64,000 nucleotides of DNA, from contig NZ_JACJPO010000054.1 in the NCBI RefSeq assembly GCF_014696105.1, positions 1 to 64,000 on the forward strand. The letters run 5' to 3'. Positions 40,535-48,367 of this stretch are shown piece by piece. Positions within the stretch are counted from its first letter, which is position 1, and every line of letters starts with the position of its first letter. The DNA is from Microcoleus sp. FACHB-1515. Its GTDB lineage: Bacteria; Cyanobacteriota; Cyanobacteriia; Elainellales; Elainellaceae. The notes beneath the pieces were generated by a model that saw only the letters and a program-made list of their open reading frames with translations, was not told the origin of the DNA and did not search any database. A program made the translations under genes and the position numbers.

Positions 40535-42712
40535 ATGACGCCGTTTGCGATCGCGCTACTTTGTGCTGCCTACATTTTTGGCCTGCTGCTGACCGGATTT
40601 GGCAACGTGGCCGGACTGCCGATCGGCGCGATCGCCTCGCTCGGTTTGGCTGTTCTAGCGGCGGTCGCGATGCCGAAATTTTGGCGAATCGGGCGATCGC
40701 GCAACTGGCTGGCCGCAGGTCTAGTAGGCTGCATCGCCGTTTTCTACTTTCAATTTCGCATTCCACAGCCGATCGCATCCGACATTAGCCATCTGCTCAA
40801 TGACGATTTTTTACAGGTGCAGGTACAAGGAACGATCGACAGTACGCCCCGCCTGACGCGCAGCCAGAAAATTCAGTTTTGGCTGAGGGCAAATCAAGCG
40901 AAAATTGGCGATCGATCGCAGTCCGTTACAGGCAAGCTGTACGTCACCGTGCCACTTTTGCAAGCAACCGGACTCTATCCAGGGCAAACGGTCAGCGTCA
41001 GTGGATTCCTTTACGATCCCAAGCCTGCCACGAATCCAGGTGGCTTCAATTTTCAGGCATATTTGCGGCAGGAAGGCGGATTTGCCGGACTGAGTGGGCG
41101 ATCGATCGAGATCACTTCTTCATCTCCACCGCCGATTTTGTGGACGGTACGGCAGCGAATTTTGCGATCGCAAGTTTCCGCCTTGGGCGTTCCTGCTGGC
41201 GTGCTGGTCAGCGCGATGGTAATGGGGCGCAATGGAATCGATTTGCCGTTTGCCGTGCAAGATGAATTTAGCCGCGCAGGTTTGGCGCACGCACTGGCGG
41301 CTTCTGGCTTTCAGGTGTCGCTGCTGATCAGCATGATTTTGGCGTTGACACGAAGACTTTCCGGTCGGACGGGCTGGATTTTAGGAACTGCAATTGTCCT
41401 CGCTTATGTTGGCCTGACGGGACTTCAGCCCGCCGTTTTGAGAGCCGCAATCATGGGATTGGCGGCGCTGTATGCCTTGACGAGCGATCGCAAAATCCGC
41501 CCGATCGCCAGTCTCCTTGTCGCGGCCACCGTTCTACTTTTGTGGAATCCGCTGTGGATTTGGAATCTCGGCTTTCAGTTCAGCTTTATGGCAACGCTGG
41601 GCTTACTGCTGACGGCGCAACCGTTGAGCGATCGCCTCGACTGGCTGCCGACTTCGATCGCTTCGACGGCTGCCGTTTCGATCGCCGCCTATTTGTGGAC
41701 ATTGCCGCTTCAGCTTTACGTGTTTGGGACGGTTTCGCCCTACAGCATTTTGATTAACATTCTGGCGACACCGCTGATTGTCGGGGTCAGCATTGGCGGC
41801 ATGGTCAACGCGCTGATTGCTTTGGGTTCGCCTGCGATCGGTGCTTTGACCGCGAAATTGCTGTTTCTCCCGACTCACGCCCTGTTGCAACTGGTCGCTC
41901 AGGTCGATCGCCTGCCGGGAAATCTGTACGCGATCGGTGCGGCTTCCACCTTTCAAGTCGTGATTCTCTACCTACTTTGGGCTAGCCTAAGCTGGCGACT
42001 TTCTCCACCGCAAAAGCCAGCCCCGCGTTTGCTGTGGATAACTGCCTTCTTGAGTTTGAGTTTGGTTGCCCTGCCTGCTTGGTACGATCGCGCTCATCTC
42101 ACGCAAATCAGCGTTCTTGCAACCGAGGAAATGCCCGTTGTCGTTGTGCAAACGCCTGGTCAGGTAGTTTTGATTAACAGCGGCAGCGAAACCGAAGTGC
42201 GCTACACGGTGCAGCCGTTTTTGCGGCAGGCGGGAATCAACCGGATCGATCGCGCCATCGCCCTCGACGATCGATCGAACTGGGAAAAACTGCGTGAAAC
42301 GAATGCGATCGAAACGCGCTATCAGGTCGGGCGGGCGATCGATGCTCGGCTGTTGGGCGAAGGTCAAACGCTGACGATCGACCCGCTACGCCTACACATT
42401 GTTTCGGCAAATCCGCCGATTCTCGAAATGCAACTTCACAATCAGCGCTGGCTACTGTTGGGATCGAAAGGGCAAATTCCTTCAACGCTGCCTCGCGCCG
42501 ATGTAGTTTGGTGGCCGGGGCACAACGCATCCATGCTGTTTCGTGCTGTTCAGCCGCAAGTAGCGATCGCCCCCAGCCTTGAGCCACCAGCCTCCAGCCT
42601 TCAGCAGAAAAACATCCACACGATCGCCACTGACGAGCAAGGTGCGATCGTGTGGACGCCCGATCGCGGATTTGCTGCCCTCCTGAGCGAAGACGAATCA
42701 AGTGGCCTATAA
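40535..42712 (+). CDS. comEC: ComEC/Rec2-family DNA uptake channel protein
   Basis: ComEC forms the inner membrane channel for DNA in natural transformation. The 725-residue protein has N-terminal membrane helices, a DUF4131/OB-like region (about 85-190; GFNFQAYLRQEGGFAGLSG), and the competence core (about 215-480) with LVSAMVMGRNGIDL, GLAHALAASGFQVSLL and LRAAIMGLAAL. A C-terminal MBL-like region (about 520-720) starts VVLINSGSETEVR but lacks the HxHxDH metal motif at the expected place. Cyanobacterial transformation needs ComEC together with type IV pili; no pil or other com gene is adjacent. Confidence 0.92.
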   Translation: MTPFAIALLCAAYIFGLLLTGFGNVAGLPIGAIASLGLAVLAAVAMPKFWRIGRSRNWLAAGLVGCIAVFYFQFRIPQPIASDISHLLNDDFLQVQVQGTIDSTPRLTRSQKIQFWLRANQAKIGDRSQSVTGKLYVTVPLLQATGLYPGQTVSVSGFLYDPKPATNPGGFNFQAYLRQEGGFAGLSGRSIEITSSSPPPILWTVRQRILRSQVSALGVPAGVLVSAMVMGRNGIDLPFAVQDEFSRAGLAHALAASGFQVSLLISMILALTRRLSGRTGWILGTAIVLAYVGLTGLQPAVLRAAIMGLAALYALTSDRKIRPIASLLVAATVLLLWNPLWIWNLGFQFSFMATLGLLLTAQPLSDRLDWLPTSIASTAAVSIAAYLWTLPLQLYVFGTVSPYSILINILATPLIVGVSIGGMVNALIALGSPAIGALTAKLLFLPTHALLQLVAQVDRLPGNLYAIGAASTFQVVILYLLWASLSWRLSPPQKPAPRLLWITAFLSLSLVALPAWYDRAHLTQISVLATEEMPVVVVQTPGQVVLINSGSETEVRYTVQPFLRQAGINRIDRAIALDDRSNWEKLRETNAIETRYQVGRAIDARLLGEGQTLTIDPLRLHIVSANPPILEMQLHNQRWLLLGSKGQIPSTLPRADVVWWPGHNASMLFRAVQPQVAIAPSLEPPASSLQQKNIHTIATDEQGAIVWTPDRGFAALLSEDESSGL

Positions 42713-42814
42713 GTAGCTCCCCACCCGTTTATGTGCTTTTGCAAGCGTCAGTAGTGCCAAAACTTTAGCTTGGCGATCGCTCTATCTCCACGTCGATATC
42801 TTGTGCTTCTTGAC

Positions 42815-42844
42815 CTTAACCTGTTCTTAATCTTATCATCCCCT
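42815..42844 (+). promoter_or_regulatory. Pho box (SphR/PhoB-type operator)
   Basis: Two perfect copies of the cyanobacterial Pho repeat PyTTAAPyPy(T/A), namely CTTAACCT (42815-42822) and CTTAATCT (42826-42833), are separated by exactly 3 bases. A degenerate third copy (CATCCCCT, 42837-42844) follows at the same spacing. The array ends 29 bases before the mgtC-like ATG. Confidence 0.7.
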
Positions 42845-42873
42845 TATCTGAGCGACTTACCGGAGTTAAGGCA

Positions 42874-43431
42874 ATGCAAGACGAAACCAATCTGCTGTTT
42901 TTCAGCCCGAATGATTGGCAAATGCTTGTGTTTCGCTTGAGTATGGCTTTGTTGGCTGGTGGCGCGATCGGATTGAATCGTCAGCGATCGAATCGACCCG
43001 CAGGAGTGCGAACCTACATGACTGTCAGCGTTGGGGCAGCCATGTTTGTGATGATTCCGCTTCAAACGAGCATTGACATTAACTCAATTAATGCGCTCAG
43101 CCGCACGGTTCAAGGCATTGCCACAGGGGTAGGATTCATCGGTGCGGGGTTGATTTTGCAGCAGTCAAGACAGAACTTGAAACCCCAAGTCAAAGGCTTA
43201 ACGTCTGCCGCAGCACTGTGGCTGACCGCAGGGCTAGGAACAGCGGCAGGCTGCGGATTGTGGCGCATGAGCTTAATTGGAACAGTGCTGATGCTGTTTA
43301 TTTTAAGCGGCGTGAAAGAACTCAAACGCGCTCCGATTTATCGATATCACCTCTATGGCAAGCGCAGTAAGAAGGCGCGATCGATTCACACTTCATCCAG
43401 TACCTCGTCTTCAACTGACGAATCAGATTAA
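42874..43431 (+). CDS. MgtC/SapB family membrane protein
   Basis: The 185-residue protein has four to five membrane helices and the MgtC blocks LLAGGAIGLNRQ, RPAGVRTYMTVSVGAAMFVM, IATGVGFIGAGLILQQ and GLTSAAALWLTAGLGTAAGC. MgtC in pathogens modulates low-magnesium and phosphate-related physiology, but its biochemical role is debated. A Pho box before the gene suggests phosphate control here. The C-terminal part is a basic, serine-rich cytoplasmic tail (about 150-185). Confidence 0.92.
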   Translation: MQDETNLLFFSPNDWQMLVFRLSMALLAGGAIGLNRQRSNRPAGVRTYMTVSVGAAMFVMIPLQTSIDINSINALSRTVQGIATGVGFIGAGLILQQSRQNLKPQVKGLTSAAALWLTAGLGTAAGCGLWRMSLIGTVLMLFILSGVKELKRAPIYRYHLYGKRSKKARSIHTSSSTSSSTDESD

Positions 43432-43527
43432 TTTGTTTTAACATTAGGGGCGATCGCAGCTTCGGCTATCACGCGGATTGCTCAAAATTACGATCGGCGG
43501 CTTTTCGGCCAAGCGTGAAGTGCTGCA

Positions 43528-45768
43528 ATGATGCCGCTCAGCTTACGATGGAGATTTGCAGTTCGTGATTCTATGGTGTCGATCGACTCACACGCTGCCA
43601 GCCCGCTCGCTGCCCGAATGCGTCCGCGCACGCTCGATGAATTTGTCGGGCAAGATGCCATTTTGGGACAGGGACGACTGCTCAGACGAGCCATCCAAGC
43701 CGATCAGCTTTCTTCCATCATTTTTTACGGTCCACCGGGGACGGGCAAAACGACGCTGGCGCAGATTATCGCCAACACAACTCGCGCTCACTTCATTGCG
43801 ATCAATGCCGTCCTCGATGGGGTCAAGGAAATTCGTGCTGCGGTGGCTTCGCCTCCGGGTGCCACTGCCCAAACGAAGCAGCAGTCCAAGCAAAAAACGA
43901 TTCTGTTTGTCGATGAGGTGCATCGCTTCAACAAAGCGCAGCAAGACGCGCTCCTGCCTTGGGTTGAGAATGGCACCGTCATCTTGATTGGCGCAACAAC
44001 TGAAAATCCGTATTTTGAGGTCAACAAAGCCCTCGTGAGTCGATCGCGCCTGTTCCAACTCAAGCCACTGACTGAAACGGATTTGCGATCGATCGTGCAG
44101 CAGGCGTTAACCGATGGCGATCGCGGTTATGGCAAGCTCAACGTTCAAATTGACTTGGACGCGATCGATCATCTGGTCAACGTTGCCAATGGCGATGCGC
44201 GAGCTTTGCTCAACGCGCTGGAACTGGCGGTTGAAACGACGCCGCCCAACGACGCAGGCGAAATTCACATTTCCCTGTCGGTTGCGGAAGAATCGATTCA
44301 GCAGCGAGCCGTGCTGTATGACAAAGAAGGCGACGTGCATTTCGACACGATCAGCGCCTTCATCAAAAGTGTGCGCGGCTCCGATGCGGATGCTGCTTTG
44401 TACTGGCTGGCTCGCATGGTGTATGCGGGAGAAGACCCGCGCTTTTTGTTTCGACGGATGCTGATTTTGGCGAGCGAGGATGTGGGTTTGGCCGATCCGC
44501 AGGCGGTTGTCGTCGTGAATGCTTGTGCAATGGCGTTCGATCGCGTCGGACTGCCCGAAGGCCGCTATCCGCTGGCTCAAGCTGCGCTGTATCTGGCAAC
44601 CGCTCCCAAGTCCAACAGCGTCATGGGCTTTTTTGATGCCCTCGCTGCCGTCGAACAAGAGCGCGAAGCCGAAGTGCCCAATCCGCTGCGTGATGCTAAG
44701 CGCGATCGCGAAGGCTTTGGGCATGGCGCAGGCTACCTCTATCCGCACGCCTATCGCGATCACTGGGTTGCCCAGCAGTATTTGCCGAACGCCTTGCAAG
44801 GCCAAGTGTTCTATCAGCCATCCAGTCAAGGCGATGAACTGCAAATCCAAACGCAGGTGGCACGGCAGCGCGAAGCCCAACTCGCGGCAATGGTTGCAGG
44901 CAGCGCGATCGCCCCGCCCGAAATTCTCACCAATAGTCCTGTCAATCGATCGCAAGACCGCTGGCTGGAGCGCACGATTTCTCAAACCGCCACGCAGCTT
45001 GCCACCGTGCGCGATCGCCTGTTTGCCGCCGCCGCGCCCCAGCGTCATCATCTGCTGCTCGACCTCAACGCCAGCAGCGGCTTACTGGTGTGGGAAGCGG
45101 TGCGACAAGTGCCCGAAGGCGGCGTGTATGCCAGGGTTCGCACTCCGGTAGAAGCTGAGGCGTTGCAGGAGCAGGCGATCGCGCTGGCCGAATTGTCGCG
45201 CCCGATCGTTGTCACCAGTTCACTAATTGAGCTGTCCACACCGTTGCCGGAGTTGCGCTTCGATCGCATCCTCGGACACAACGCCCTGATTGCGGAGCCA
45301 AACAAAGCGGAAATTTTGCGATCGATCGCCACCTTGCTCGCCGCCGATGGGGTGCTGTTGCTGGGGGAAACCGTACCCCGCCATACGCAACGGCTCTATC
45401 AGCTAGTTGAATCCGATCGATTTCCGGCTGATTTCTACCAGCGGTGGATTGCGGCGGAAGAAACGATCTACCAGAATGCCGCTGATCCGATGACCAACTG
45501 GGATGCGGTTGATCTGCAAGCTGCCGCTGAGCAGGCCGGACTGAGGGCGACCGTGCAGCTAGAGCCGACCCAAACCCAAATGCTGCTGACGCCTGCGCTG
45601 CTCGATCGCTGGTTTCGTCCGGGTAAAGATCGCCCCAGCTATGGCGATCGATTGGCGCAACACCTCAAGCCGAGTGAGGTTGCAGCCATTGAGCAGGCAT
45701 TGACCCGCCTTGCTTCGCAGCAGGTGCACTGGCGAGGCGCGATCGCTTATCTGCGTGCAGAGCTTTAA
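43528..45768 (+). CDS. RarA/MgsA-type AAA ATPase fused to a methyltransferase-like domain
   Basis: A 746-residue fusion. Residues about 25-440 form a complete RarA (MgsA) clamp-loader-like ATPase: Walker A YGPPGTGKTTLA, Walker B TILFVDEVHRFNKAQQDALL, sensor ATTENPYFEVN and the C-terminal GYLYPHAYRDHWVAQQYLP. RarA acts at stalled replication forks. From about 485 on comes a domain with the pattern of a Rossmann methyltransferase: HHLLLDLNASSGLLVWEAV, FDRILGHNALIA, LLAADGVLLLGETVP. Its SAM loop is degenerate, so activity is doubtful. The first ATG is at 43528; ATG 43573 (MVSIDSHAA) is likely. Confidence 0.88.
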   Translation: MMPLSLRWRFAVRDSMVSIDSHAASPLAARMRPRTLDEFVGQDAILGQGRLLRRAIQADQLSSIIFYGPPGTGKTTLAQIIANTTRAHFIAINAVLDGVKEIRAAVASPPGATAQTKQQSKQKTILFVDEVHRFNKAQQDALLPWVENGTVILIGATTENPYFEVNKALVSRSRLFQLKPLTETDLRSIVQQALTDGDRGYGKLNVQIDLDAIDHLVNVANGDARALLNALELAVETTPPNDAGEIHISLSVAEESIQQRAVLYDKEGDVHFDTISAFIKSVRGSDADAALYWLARMVYAGEDPRFLFRRMLILASEDVGLADPQAVVVVNACAMAFDRVGLPEGRYPLAQAALYLATAPKSNSVMGFFDALAAVEQEREAEVPNPLRDAKRDREGFGHGAGYLYPHAYRDHWVAQQYLPNALQGQVFYQPSSQGDELQIQTQVARQREAQLAAMVAGSAIAPPEILTNSPVNRSQDRWLERTISQTATQLATVRDRLFAAAAPQRHHLLLDLNASSGLLVWEAVRQVPEGGVYARVRTPVEAEALQEQAIALAELSRPIVVTSSLIELSTPLPELRFDRILGHNALIAEPNKAEILRSIATLLAADGVLLLGETVPRHTQRLYQLVESDRFPADFYQRWIAAEETIYQNAADPMTNWDAVDLQAAAEQAGLRATVQLEPTQTQMLLTPALLDRWFRPGKDRPSYGDRLAQHLKPSEVAAIEQALTRLASQQVHWRGAIAYLRAEL

Positions 45769-45895: not shown

Positions 45896-48367
45896 TTAAC
45901 CAAGTCCGCTCAAGGTTGAGCCGGAAAAAACAGAATTAGCGGCGAGTGCCTGAGTGCGAGTGAACGGCTGATTGGCTTCCTGATACATGCGTGCCAAAGC
46001 ACCTGTAAAGGCAGCATTGTAGTCCAAGGCGACTTCGTTCGTGATGAAGTTGGTGCGATCGTCAACATAGGCGTTGTCGTTGGGCGCAGACAAGCCGCCA
46101 ACCAACGCACCCGTCAAGACATTGCGGTTAGTCAGCGGGTCGTTGATGTTGTTGGTGGTGGAGCCATGTGCAGCGCGATGGTGCGGATTGCGGGGAGCGT
46201 TGTTGCCAAATCCCACCACATAGCTGCGGTTGTTGGGATTATCGCCCAGCAGGTAGTCGATTTGATCAGCGGCAAAGTTGGAGTAGCGCCCGGAGGAGGC
46301 GGAGCCACCGCCCGGATCGTTCACCGTGTCGCTATAAACTCCGGCCACAAACGCAGTATTGGCGCTATAGCGAGCGGAACCCCACTGGTCGAGCCACGCG
46401 AAACCACCGGGCGTGTAGCGAATGCCTGCGCCGCTTTTGTCGCTCCAGTGGTTGAGCCAGTTTTCGACATCTGTGCGATAGCGAGAATTGCCCGTTTCCT
46501 GCGCCAGCAGAACTGCTGCACCGTGCGATTTTTCATCCCAAGATTGCGTCCAGCCTTGGTACACACCTTGGTAGTAGCTTTGCGCTTTGTTGAGGTAGAA
46601 CGTGTCGGTTCCACCTTTGGCTTCGATCGCTTTGTGCAGCCAAGTTGCAGACCACACCAGTTCATCCGTGTAGCTGTAGGACGGATAGAAGTTGGCCGCA
46701 TCAGGAATCGAATCTGAGTATTTGCCGCGATACGTGTCTGCGAAGCTAAAAAGCTGGGTGGCGTGGGTGAGCAGGCGATCGGCATAGGCAGCATCAGTGG
46801 GACGAAACGCGATCGAGGCTGCTGCTAGTGCTGCCGCTGCTTCTCCAGCTAGATCAGAGCCAGGACGCTGAGCATCAATCTTGAAGGCTGGCCGCGCCAT
46901 TGTCATCGTTTCGGGCGGCCCCCAGTAGGCATGGTCAGGCCCACCGAGTCCGACTTGACCCCAAAATTCGTTCGGTGCAGTGTGCGCTTTGAGAATGTAG
47001 TCGGTTCCCCACTTGATCGCGTCGAGCGCTTCATCAAGCTGGCCGCTTTGCTGGTAGGCACTGCGATATTGCACCACGCCCCAGCCCAACATCGTCATTG
47101 ACGCGGCCATCGGAAAGCCAAACTTGACGTGATCGCCCGCGTCGTAATAGCCGCCTGTCAGGTCAACACCGACATCTGCACCATCGCGCAAGGCGGAATC
47201 GCCCCGCCAAGCAATGCGATTGGTGCTGGGCAATCTGCCCGATCGCTGCGCTTCGTAAAACAAAAACGACTTCTCCAATGCCTCCCCGTAGTTAAACCTG
47301 CTGGATGCAGGCGGCGCATCGTTGTCGATAATCGTCGCAACGCCTTCTCCATCCGCGATCGTCGCGTTGGCGGCACTGCTGAGGTTAACCGCAAAAGTTT
47401 CACCCGATTCCGCGATCGTGTCGCCCAAAACGCTCACTTCGATCGTCTTGCGCGTTTCGCCCGGAGCAAAGCGCAGTGTGCCCGTTTTGCTGGTGTAGTC
47501 CGAATTGGCGATCGCAGTCCGATTGGCCGTCGCAAAATTCACGTCAATGGTGCGCGTGCTGCTGGCGGAAAGGTTGACGCTGAACGTGGCGGTTGCTGCG
47601 CCAGTGTTGCCCTCGGTGACGGTGACATCACCGATCGAAAGATTAGGGGTTGGAATGGGAGTTGGGGCTGGAGTTGGAGCGGGCGTTGGAATTGGAACTG
47701 GAGCAACATCATCGTTGGTAATTGTGCCAACGCCTTCTCCATCTGCGATCGTGGCGTTGGTTGCACCGCTGAGTCTGACCGAGAAAGTTTCGTTAGATTC
47801 CGCGATCGTGTCGCCCAAAACGCCGACCGTAATGGTTTTCTTTGTTTCGCCTGGTGCAAACCTCAAGGTGTTGGTGCTGGCCGTGTAGTCTGAGCCTGCC
47901 GTTGCGGTTCCATTGGCAGTGGCGTACTGCACCGTCACGGTTTGCTGGCTGGCTTGTGACAGTTGCACATCAAACGTGGCAGGCGCGGTTCCGGTATTGC
48001 CCTCAGCGATCGTTCTGTCGGCGATGGACAAGGTTGGCAGAGCGACTGCGCCACCGCTATTGAGGGGAGAACCGTTCAAAATGAAGTTCGTCGGCTGTGC
48101 GACTGCGCCGCTCGCTTTGCTGCCGTTGAACCCAAAAGAGGCAGTGCTAGTTGGAACGATGGTGCGGTTCCAACTAGCGTTCCGTATCACATAGCGGCTA
48201 CCTTGACGGCTAACAATTTCAGCATTCCAGATTTCAGTAATCGTGAAGGGCGCGTCAAACTCTAGCGTCCAGCCATTTAAACTGCTGGTGCTGGAGTTGG
48301 CGATCGACAGATTCGCACTGAAGCCGCTGCCCCAGTCGCTTGCAACGGAGAAGTCAACAGTATTCAT
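45896..48367 (-). CDS. GH9 cellulase with CBM2 and two Calx-beta domains
   Basis: An 823-residue glycoside hydrolase. Residues 1-100 form a family 2 carbohydrate-binding module (SDWGSGFSANLSIAN, LNGWTLEFD, ASWNRTI); about 112-225 and 240-350 are two Calx-beta repeats (ATANGTATAGSDYT, RFAPGETKKTI) joined by a proline-rich linker; 355-800 is the GH9 catalytic domain with TGGYYDAGDHVKFGFPMA, NPHHRAAHG and DDRTNFITNEVALDYNA, the last holding the acid glutamate. Enzymes of this family cut beta-1,4-glucans. There is no N-terminal signal peptide, since the CBM begins at residue 3. In cyanobacteria such enzymes may remodel the organism's own cellulose. Confidence 0.92.
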   Translation of the reverse strand: MNTVDFSVASDWGSGFSANLSIANSSTSSLNGWTLEFDAPFTITEIWNAEIVSRQGSRYVIRNASWNRTIVPTSTASFGFNGSKASGAVAQPTNFILNGSPLNSGGAVALPTLSIADRTIAEGNTGTAPATFDVQLSQASQQTVTVQYATANGTATAGSDYTASTNTLRFAPGETKKTITVGVLGDTIAESNETFSVRLSGATNATIADGEGVGTITNDDVAPVPIPTPAPTPAPTPIPTPNLSIGDVTVTEGNTGAATATFSVNLSASSTRTIDVNFATANRTAIANSDYTSKTGTLRFAPGETRKTIEVSVLGDTIAESGETFAVNLSSAANATIADGEGVATIIDNDAPPASSRFNYGEALEKSFLFYEAQRSGRLPSTNRIAWRGDSALRDGADVGVDLTGGYYDAGDHVKFGFPMAASMTMLGWGVVQYRSAYQQSGQLDEALDAIKWGTDYILKAHTAPNEFWGQVGLGGPDHAYWGPPETMTMARPAFKIDAQRPGSDLAGEAAAALAAASIAFRPTDAAYADRLLTHATQLFSFADTYRGKYSDSIPDAANFYPSYSYTDELVWSATWLHKAIEAKGGTDTFYLNKAQSYYQGVYQGWTQSWDEKSHGAAVLLAQETGNSRYRTDVENWLNHWSDKSGAGIRYTPGGFAWLDQWGSARYSANTAFVAGVYSDTVNDPGGGSASSGRYSNFAADQIDYLLGDNPNNRSYVVGFGNNAPRNPHHRAAHGSTTNNINDPLTNRNVLTGALVGGLSAPNDNAYVDDRTNFITNEVALDYNAAFTGALARMYQEANQPFTRTQALAANSVFSGSTLSGLG

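What the first reader, a model, noticed from the sequence alone, without database searches (positions are those of the whole stretch)
42815..43431. Pho box directly upstream of an mgtC-like gene
CTTAACCT-3-CTTAATCT is a textbook cyanobacterial Pho repeat pair, with a weak third copy, ending 29 bases before the start codon. This suggests control by the phosphate regulator SphR, tying MgtC to phosphate rather than magnesium.
Basis: partly seen in the sequence, partly recalled or inferred. Interest (0 to 1): 0.5.

Follow-up and report, generated by a model that had tools for sequence, protein, structure and literature searches.

The report
Phosphate switch inside an mgtC promoter
A cyanobacterial membrane-protein gene related to mgtC carries the binding repeats of the phosphate regulator right inside its promoter, an arrangement kept in many relatives that should switch the gene off, not on, when phosphate runs short.

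Summary
The Pho box pair is real: CTTAACCT (42815-42822), 3 bp, CTTAATCT (42826-42833), before an mgtC-family gene (42874-43431). The sequence alone is not decisive: the genome holds 5 such pairs against 6 for a reversed control pattern. Conservation is. In an "NRQ" subclade of cyanobacterial MgtC proteins, 14 of 30 first-set genes have a strong 11-bp-period pair upstream (other periods 0-1; flanking windows 5 of 757). In a later set, 30 of 59 pass 13 bits at period 11 (other periods 0-8).

I disagree on direction. The boxes fill the spacer of a sigma70-type promoter, TTGACC-18-TATCAT. pstS promoters of the same family have the -10 exactly 8 bp after the last box in 12 of 17; mgtC has that in 0 of 25 later and 1 of 15 first-set genes, and 19 of the 25 have a strong core promoter overlapping the boxes. 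A published synthetic promoter with boxes between -35 and -10 is repressed in low phosphate through SphS (PMC13226834). Best reading: SphR represses this mgtC under phosphate limitation. No expression or binding data exist here; direction is inferred.

The parts
42804..42811 (+). decayed upstream position of a third Pho box (TGCTTCTT)
   Evidence: 11 bp upstream of box 1; in L004/L061 and L006/L050 this place holds TTTAACTT and ATTAACTA
42810..42815 (+). -35-like TTGACC; overlaps box 1 by one base
   Evidence: only sigma70-like promoter found in 42700-43540, 10 of 12 consensus positions; 2 of 500 shuffles as good
42815..42822 (+). Pho box 1 CTTAACCT
42826..42833 (+). Pho box 2 CTTAATCT
42834..42839 (+). 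-10-like TATCAT abutting box 2, 34 nt before the ATG
   Evidence: TATGAT, TATAAT, TATAAT at the matching place in L061, L048, L065; box-less sister clade keeps TATAAT 33-35 nt before the assumed start in 4 of 5
   Evidence: -0.1 bits; not conserved
42857..42867 (+). TTACCGGAGTT, similar element in several relatives; its GGAG (42862-42865) can serve as ribosome binding site
42874..43431 (+). mgtC/sapB-family gene, 185 aa, NRQ subclade
40535..42712 (+). upstream neighbour: ComEC/Rec2-like gene
43528..45768 (+). downstream neighbour: MgsA/RarA-like AAA ATPase, long form

Best explanation
The gene encodes a small MgtC/SapB-family membrane protein transcribed from a strong sigma70-type promoter (TTGACC-18-TATCAT). 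Two SphR half-sites fill the promoter's spacer and touch both hexamers. When phosphate is ample, SphR is inactive and the gene is on. When phosphate is short, SphS phosphorylates SphR, SphR covers the core promoter, RNA polymerase is kept off, and mgtC is shut down. Shown: the sequence features, their conservation, and their difference from the pstS arrangement. Inferred: that SphR is the protein that binds, that binding represses, and the purpose, for which my guess is that removing MgtC lifts a brake on ATP or phosphate use.
For: Conservation: NRQ subclade 14 of 30 genes with a pair >=15 bits at period 11 against 0-1 at periods 8-10 and 12-15; flank windows 5 of 757. Later set: 30 of 59 pass 13 bits at period 11, other periods 0-8. 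Regulator: a PhoB-like/PhoR-like pair in L045 (below curated cut-offs) and a pstS-pstC operon with CTTAACCTttcCTTTACTT. Geometry: pstS -10 at +8 in 12 of 17; mgtC 1 of 15 first set, 0 of 25 later set. Core promoter around the boxes reaches 9.5 bits in 12 of 17 first-set and 19 of 25 later-set mgtC, 2 of 17 pstS. The -10 sits at the same distance in box-less sisters. Published: boxes between -35 and -10 give SphS-dependent repression; urtA, with boxes near the -10, is repressed (PMC13226834).
Against: No transcription start, binding or expression data. Many subclade members lack the box (34 of 59 in the later set lack a + strand pair >=13 bits). L077 and L081 have boxes but no good core promoter, and L189/L190 have boxes with the -10 at +6 or +5. 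Pho boxes resemble -10 and -35 hexamers (TAACCT, TTAACC), so some overlap is expected; in the f32 genomes the outer 'boxes' coincide with TTTACT and TAAATT. The -35/-10 frequencies are recalled E. coli values. Most known SphR targets are activated. This genome's urtA shows no good pair (best 7.5 bits).
Confidence: 0.62

Rival explanations
1. SphR activates this mgtC in phosphate limitation; the real -10 lies further downstream (for example TTATCT, 42844-42849) and the boxes replace the -35.
For: Most known SphR targets are induced (PMC13226834). The box pair is as good as that before pstS. TTATCT starts 10 bp after box 2.
Against: No good -10 at the pstS distance in mgtC genes (0 of 25 later set, 1 of 15 first set). 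TATCAT abutting box 2 is conserved and sits at the same distance from the start in box-less sisters.
Confidence: 0.2
2. SphR binds, but with mixed outcomes by lineage: repression in the window clade and most others, activation in a few (L077, L081, L189, L190).
For: Geometry differs between lineages.
Against: The majority pattern is a core promoter around the boxes (19 of 25 later set).
Confidence: 0.1
3. The repeats are chance, or a by-product of TTAA-rich core promoters, with no regulator.
For: Genome-wide pattern count is no higher than the reversed control (5 against 6). Boxes resemble promoter hexamers. Many members lack them.
Against: Period-11 specificity in two sets; flanking windows 5 of 757; the central box has no role in a sigma70 promoter.
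Confidence: 0.06
4. Another OmpR-family regulator, not SphR, uses these repeats.
For: The own genome gives 136 matches to the PhoB model, many of them over the whole model, so other OmpR-type regulators exist.
Against: Same sequence and period as the published SphR boxes and as the own pstS box.
Confidence: 0.05

Closest known systems
Synthetic promoter PPi-neg and native urtA promoter of Synechocystis PCC 6803 (PMC13226834; passages and sections 12-13 read)
   Same: Two SphR motifs between -35 and -10, partly overlapping the -35 (PPi-neg); boxes close to the -10 (urtA); both repressed in low phosphate
   Different: PPi-neg is man-made; urtA is a urea transporter gene. Here it is a natural promoter of an mgtC gene, shared by many species; no expression test
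Activated Pho promoters: pstS, sphX, phoA (PMC1906773 Table 1; own-family pstS)
   Same: Box sequence, 8+3 period, two or three copies
   Different: In pstS the -10 lies 8 bp after the last box and the core promoter is poor; here the boxes sit inside a good core promoter
Salmonella MgtC (PMC6658541, PMC12714265; passages read)
   Same: MgtC family; link to phosphate (it binds PhoR and promotes phosphate uptake; it also inhibits ATP synthase)
   Different: Salmonella mgtC is transcribed under PhoP; the cyanobacterial protein is shorter (185 aa against 231) and its PF02308 match ends at residue 152; here the phosphate regulator appears to act on the gene

Membership tests
Cyanobacterial Pho (SphR) regulon | at least two tandem YTTAAYYW boxes with 3-bp linkers upstream of the gene | tested here: met
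   42815-42833, 0 mismatches
Cyanobacterial Pho (SphR) regulon | three tandem boxes (as stated in PMC1906773) | tested here: not met
   third copy -0.1 bits in the window; PMC13226834 accepts two to four; relatives L061, L048, L064, L006 have three
Cyanobacterial Pho (SphR) regulon | box conserved before orthologues | tested here: met
   14 of 30 (>=15 bits) and 30 of 59 (>=13 bits); far from universal
Cyanobacterial Pho (SphR) regulon | SphS-SphR encoded in the genome | tested here: inconclusive
   best candidate pair in L045 has PhoB and PnpS/PhoR as best models but below curated cut-offs
Cyanobacterial Pho (SphR) regulon | SphR-dependent response to phosphate | not testable with these tools
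   needs expression and binding experiments
SphR-repressed promoter (urtA/PPi-neg type) | boxes between -35 and -10 or close to the -10 | tested here: met
SphR-repressed promoter (urtA/PPi-neg type) | lower expression in low phosphate | not testable with these tools
   no data
SphR-activated promoter (pstS type) | -10 about 8 bp downstream of the last box | tested here: not met
MgtC/SapB family | PF02308 domain above the gathering score | tested here: met
   121.9 against 31.4 bits, residues 22-152
MgtC virulence-type protein (NF011912, NF007431) | score above the NCBIfam equivalog cut-off | tested here: not met
   64.3 of 255 and 90.1 of 214 bits

The most novel reading that the evidence does not exclude
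A whole cyanobacterial MgtC subclade forms a phosphate-repressed arm of the Pho regulon: SphR switches MgtC off in phosphate famine by occupying the promoter core, lifting a brake on ATP or phosphate assimilation. This would mirror Salmonella, where MgtC acts on the phosphate sensor kinase PhoR, and would make MgtC a two-way link between phosphate and magnesium control far outside pathogens.
Probability: 0.35. Interest if true: 0.72.

Novelty: new member of a known kind. Interest (0 to 1): 0.55.

Why it matters
PMC13226834 calls urtA the only known exception in the Pho regulon, the one gene that SphR represses. A conserved, natural family of promoters built like the synthetic repressed one would widen the regulon and suggest that its direction can be read from geometry. 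What MgtC does outside pathogens is, to my knowledge, unclear; a phosphate-controlled mgtC in cyanobacteria gives a simple place to test whether MgtC balances phosphate against magnesium.

Tried and rejected
Rejected: the downstream third box; chance as the sole cause; a known structured RNA leader (no Rfam hit at E up to 5); an operon or conserved neighbourhood with phosphate genes (the recurring flank genes among 35 loci, showed no pst or phosphatase cluster by eye; they were not scanned against a library). No solved structure matches the protein by sequence; structure prediction was not run. Own urtA has no good Pho pair. Taking the single best sigma70 promoter around pstS gave scattered positions, so the pstS grammar rests on the -10 scan. 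The order-level search returned only the 36 genomes of the family and gave nothing new; the family of G146 gave no new subclade member.

Literature: the searches listed no paper that, from its title and the start of its abstract, ties mgtC to a cyanobacterial Pho box. MgtC is absent from the main texts of PMC1906773, PMC9846622 and PMC11358556. PMC1906773's supplementary tables of conserved genes were not readable, so a listing there is possible. PMC9846622 reports that attempts to find a conserved P-box in Nodularia failed (passage).

Full report
Observation. CTTAACCT-gtt-CTTAATCT lies at 42815-42833 on the + strand, 40 nt before the ATG (42874) of a 185-aa ORF. The ORF matches PF02308 MgtC at 121.9 bits but scores far below the cut-offs of the two NCBIfam MgtC models. 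The motif alone is weak evidence. In the window one match at up to one mismatch stands against 0.05 expected, but in the whole genome BTTAAYYWN3BTTAAYYW gives 5 hits and the reversed control 6.

Regulator and positive control. The genome has a pstS-pstC operon with CTTAACCTttcCTTTACTT, 54 nt before the start codon assumed for pstS, and a PhoU-like gene. L045 holds a response regulator whose best NCBIfam model is PhoB, followed by a kinase whose best models are PnpS and PhoR. All are below their cut-offs, and another regulator (L044) scores slightly higher on the PhoB model, so naming the L045 pair SphR-SphS is an inference.

Conservation, first set. I collected mgtC loci from the window's family of genomes (29 of 36 genomes with a match), from named genome contigs (12 loci) and from 388 genomes of the class (205 with a match, of which I analysed the 30 loci returned). 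Of 72 loci, 67 gave distinct proteins and 66 had enough upstream sequence. A maximum-likelihood tree puts the window gene in a group of proteins with a GxNRQ...RPAG(L/M)RT signature; the fork of 29 rows has support 98/73 and the fork just outside it 100/95. Thirty genes of this subclade were scored over 250 nt. At period 11, 14 reach 15 bits and 18 reach 11 bits; at periods 8, 9, 10, 12, 13, 14 and 15 the numbers at 15 bits are 1, 0, 0, 1, 0, 0, 1. Windows elsewhere in the same loci give 5 of 757 at 15 bits and 29 of 757 at 11 bits. The 36 other MgtC genes give 5 at 15 bits. Against: 12 of these 30 have no pair at 11 bits, among them Nostoc flagelliforme (L055) and a truncated copy in a contig named Cyanobium (L051). 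The five members of an N-type sister group (L049, L053, L054, L056, L057) have none. On the whole tree the box label needs 12 changes, so it was gained or lost many times.

Relatives closest to the window. L061: TTTAACTT-gct-CTTAACCT-gtt-TTTAACCT, then TATGAT. L048: CTTAACTT-gat-TTTAACCT-gag-TTCAACCT, then TATAAT. L065: CTTAAACT-tta-CTTAACCT-tgc-TCAAACCT, then TATAAT. L064 and L006 also have three boxes. In the window the last box is followed directly by TATCAT, so by this alignment the missing box is the upstream one (42804-42811).

Promoter geometry. A simple scan finds one sigma70-like promoter in 42700-43540: TTGACC (42810-42815)-18-TATCAT (42834-42839). Box 1 overlaps the -35 by one base and box 2 abuts the -10. 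For comparison I took 30 pstS loci of the same family. In 17 of them with a + strand pair of at least 13 bits, 12 have a -10 of at least 3 bits exactly 8 bp after the last box, the own pstS included. In mgtC this is so in 1 of 15 genes at that threshold in the first set (L059, a truncated gene). The best -35/-10 core around the boxes has median 10.2 bits in 17 mgtC promoters (those of the 30 with a + strand pair of 11 bits or more) and 5.9 bits in 17 pstS promoters (Mann-Whitney p = 0.001; 12 of 17 against 2 of 17 reach 9.5 bits). Shuffles of the window's region are as good in 2 of 500; L061 alone is not significant (58 of 500), and L077, L081, L058 and L059 show no good core. In the box-less sister group, 4 of 5 keep TATAAT 33-35 nt before the assumed start codon, the same place as in the window (34 nt). 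That supports TATCAT as the true -10, independent of the boxes; the sister starts are partly TTG and assumed. The hexamer frequencies are recalled E. coli values.

Later set. With the box matrix and the 9.5-bit promoter threshold already in use, I searched the family of G146 (no new subclade member) and 388 genomes of the order of G135 (233 with a match). I took all subclade places of that list down to 224 bits that were not yet in hand: 28 loci returned and 32 stretches fetched. Sixty genes were found; 59 had at least 150 nt upstream. At period 11, 30 of 59 reach 13 bits on either strand; periods 8, 9, 10, 12, 13, 14, 15 give 2, 1, 5, 8, 0, 1, 2. On the + strand 25 of 59 reach 13 bits. Of these, 19 have a core promoter of at least 9.5 bits around the boxes, against 2 of 17 for pstS (Fisher p = 9e-5), and 0 of 25 have the -10 at +8, against 12 of 17 (p = 6e-7). 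The rows are related to each other (L173 shares its last 120 nt with L048), so these p-values are too small. Misses: 34 of 59 lack a + strand pair of 13 bits; many are near-identical genes of one genus (f31 g127). L177, L180, L189 and L190 have boxes with other spacings.

What is published. PMC13226834 (sections 12 and 13 read) states that induced promoters have Pho boxes over or upstream of the -35, that the SphR-repressed urtA has two close to the -10, and that a synthetic promoter with two SphR motifs between -35 and -10, partly overlapping the -35, falls below detection after two days without phosphate; this repression is lost without SphS. The window's promoter has the same layout. In Salmonella, MgtC binds PhoR and promotes phosphate uptake (PMC6658541, passages) and inhibits ATP synthase (PMC12714265, passages). 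Bruna et al. 2021, seen only as a reference title there, was not readable.

Judgement. That this mgtC is a target of the phosphate regulator: about 0.88. That the effect is repression: about 0.7 given binding. The physiological purpose is a guess.

Noticed in passing
L034:1501-1519 (own genome C48:149670-149688): Strong Pho pair GTTAACCTcatCTTAACCT upstream of purC (recognised by eye); conservation not tested.
   Followed up: no
L001 (own genome C63:176422-176440) and L017: The second mgtC of this genome (GLERQ type) has a Pho pair on the opposite strand 30 nt before its start, also in a same-genus genome; 5 of 36 non-subclade mgtC genes have a pair of 15 bits or more.
   Followed up: partly
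42857-42867: TTACCGGAGTT downstream of the promoter is similar in L061, L048, L064, L006 and in L070, L072, L075, L073, where it lies far from the start codon; role unknown.
   Followed up: partly
42970-42987 (GLNRQR): The subclade has Asn (27 of 29 rows) or Asp (2) where 25 of 38 other MgtC rows have Glu in the GxER motif.
   Followed up: partly
L058 and L059: Scytonema tolypothrichoides and Brasilonema bromeliae carry truncated mgtC frames that still have a Pho pair about 170 nt upstream.
   Followed up: no
L051: A contig named Cyanobium sp. FGCU6 holds a truncated copy close to filamentous relatives; possible contamination or transfer.
   Followed up: no
L037:1501-1519 (own genome C78:74008-74026): Pho pair CTTAACTTcatGTTAACTT about 200 nt before a small membrane-protein frame.
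   Followed up: no
45896-48367 (-): Large reading frame that looks like a secreted cellulase with repeated Calx-beta-like modules (by eye, not tested).
   Followed up: no
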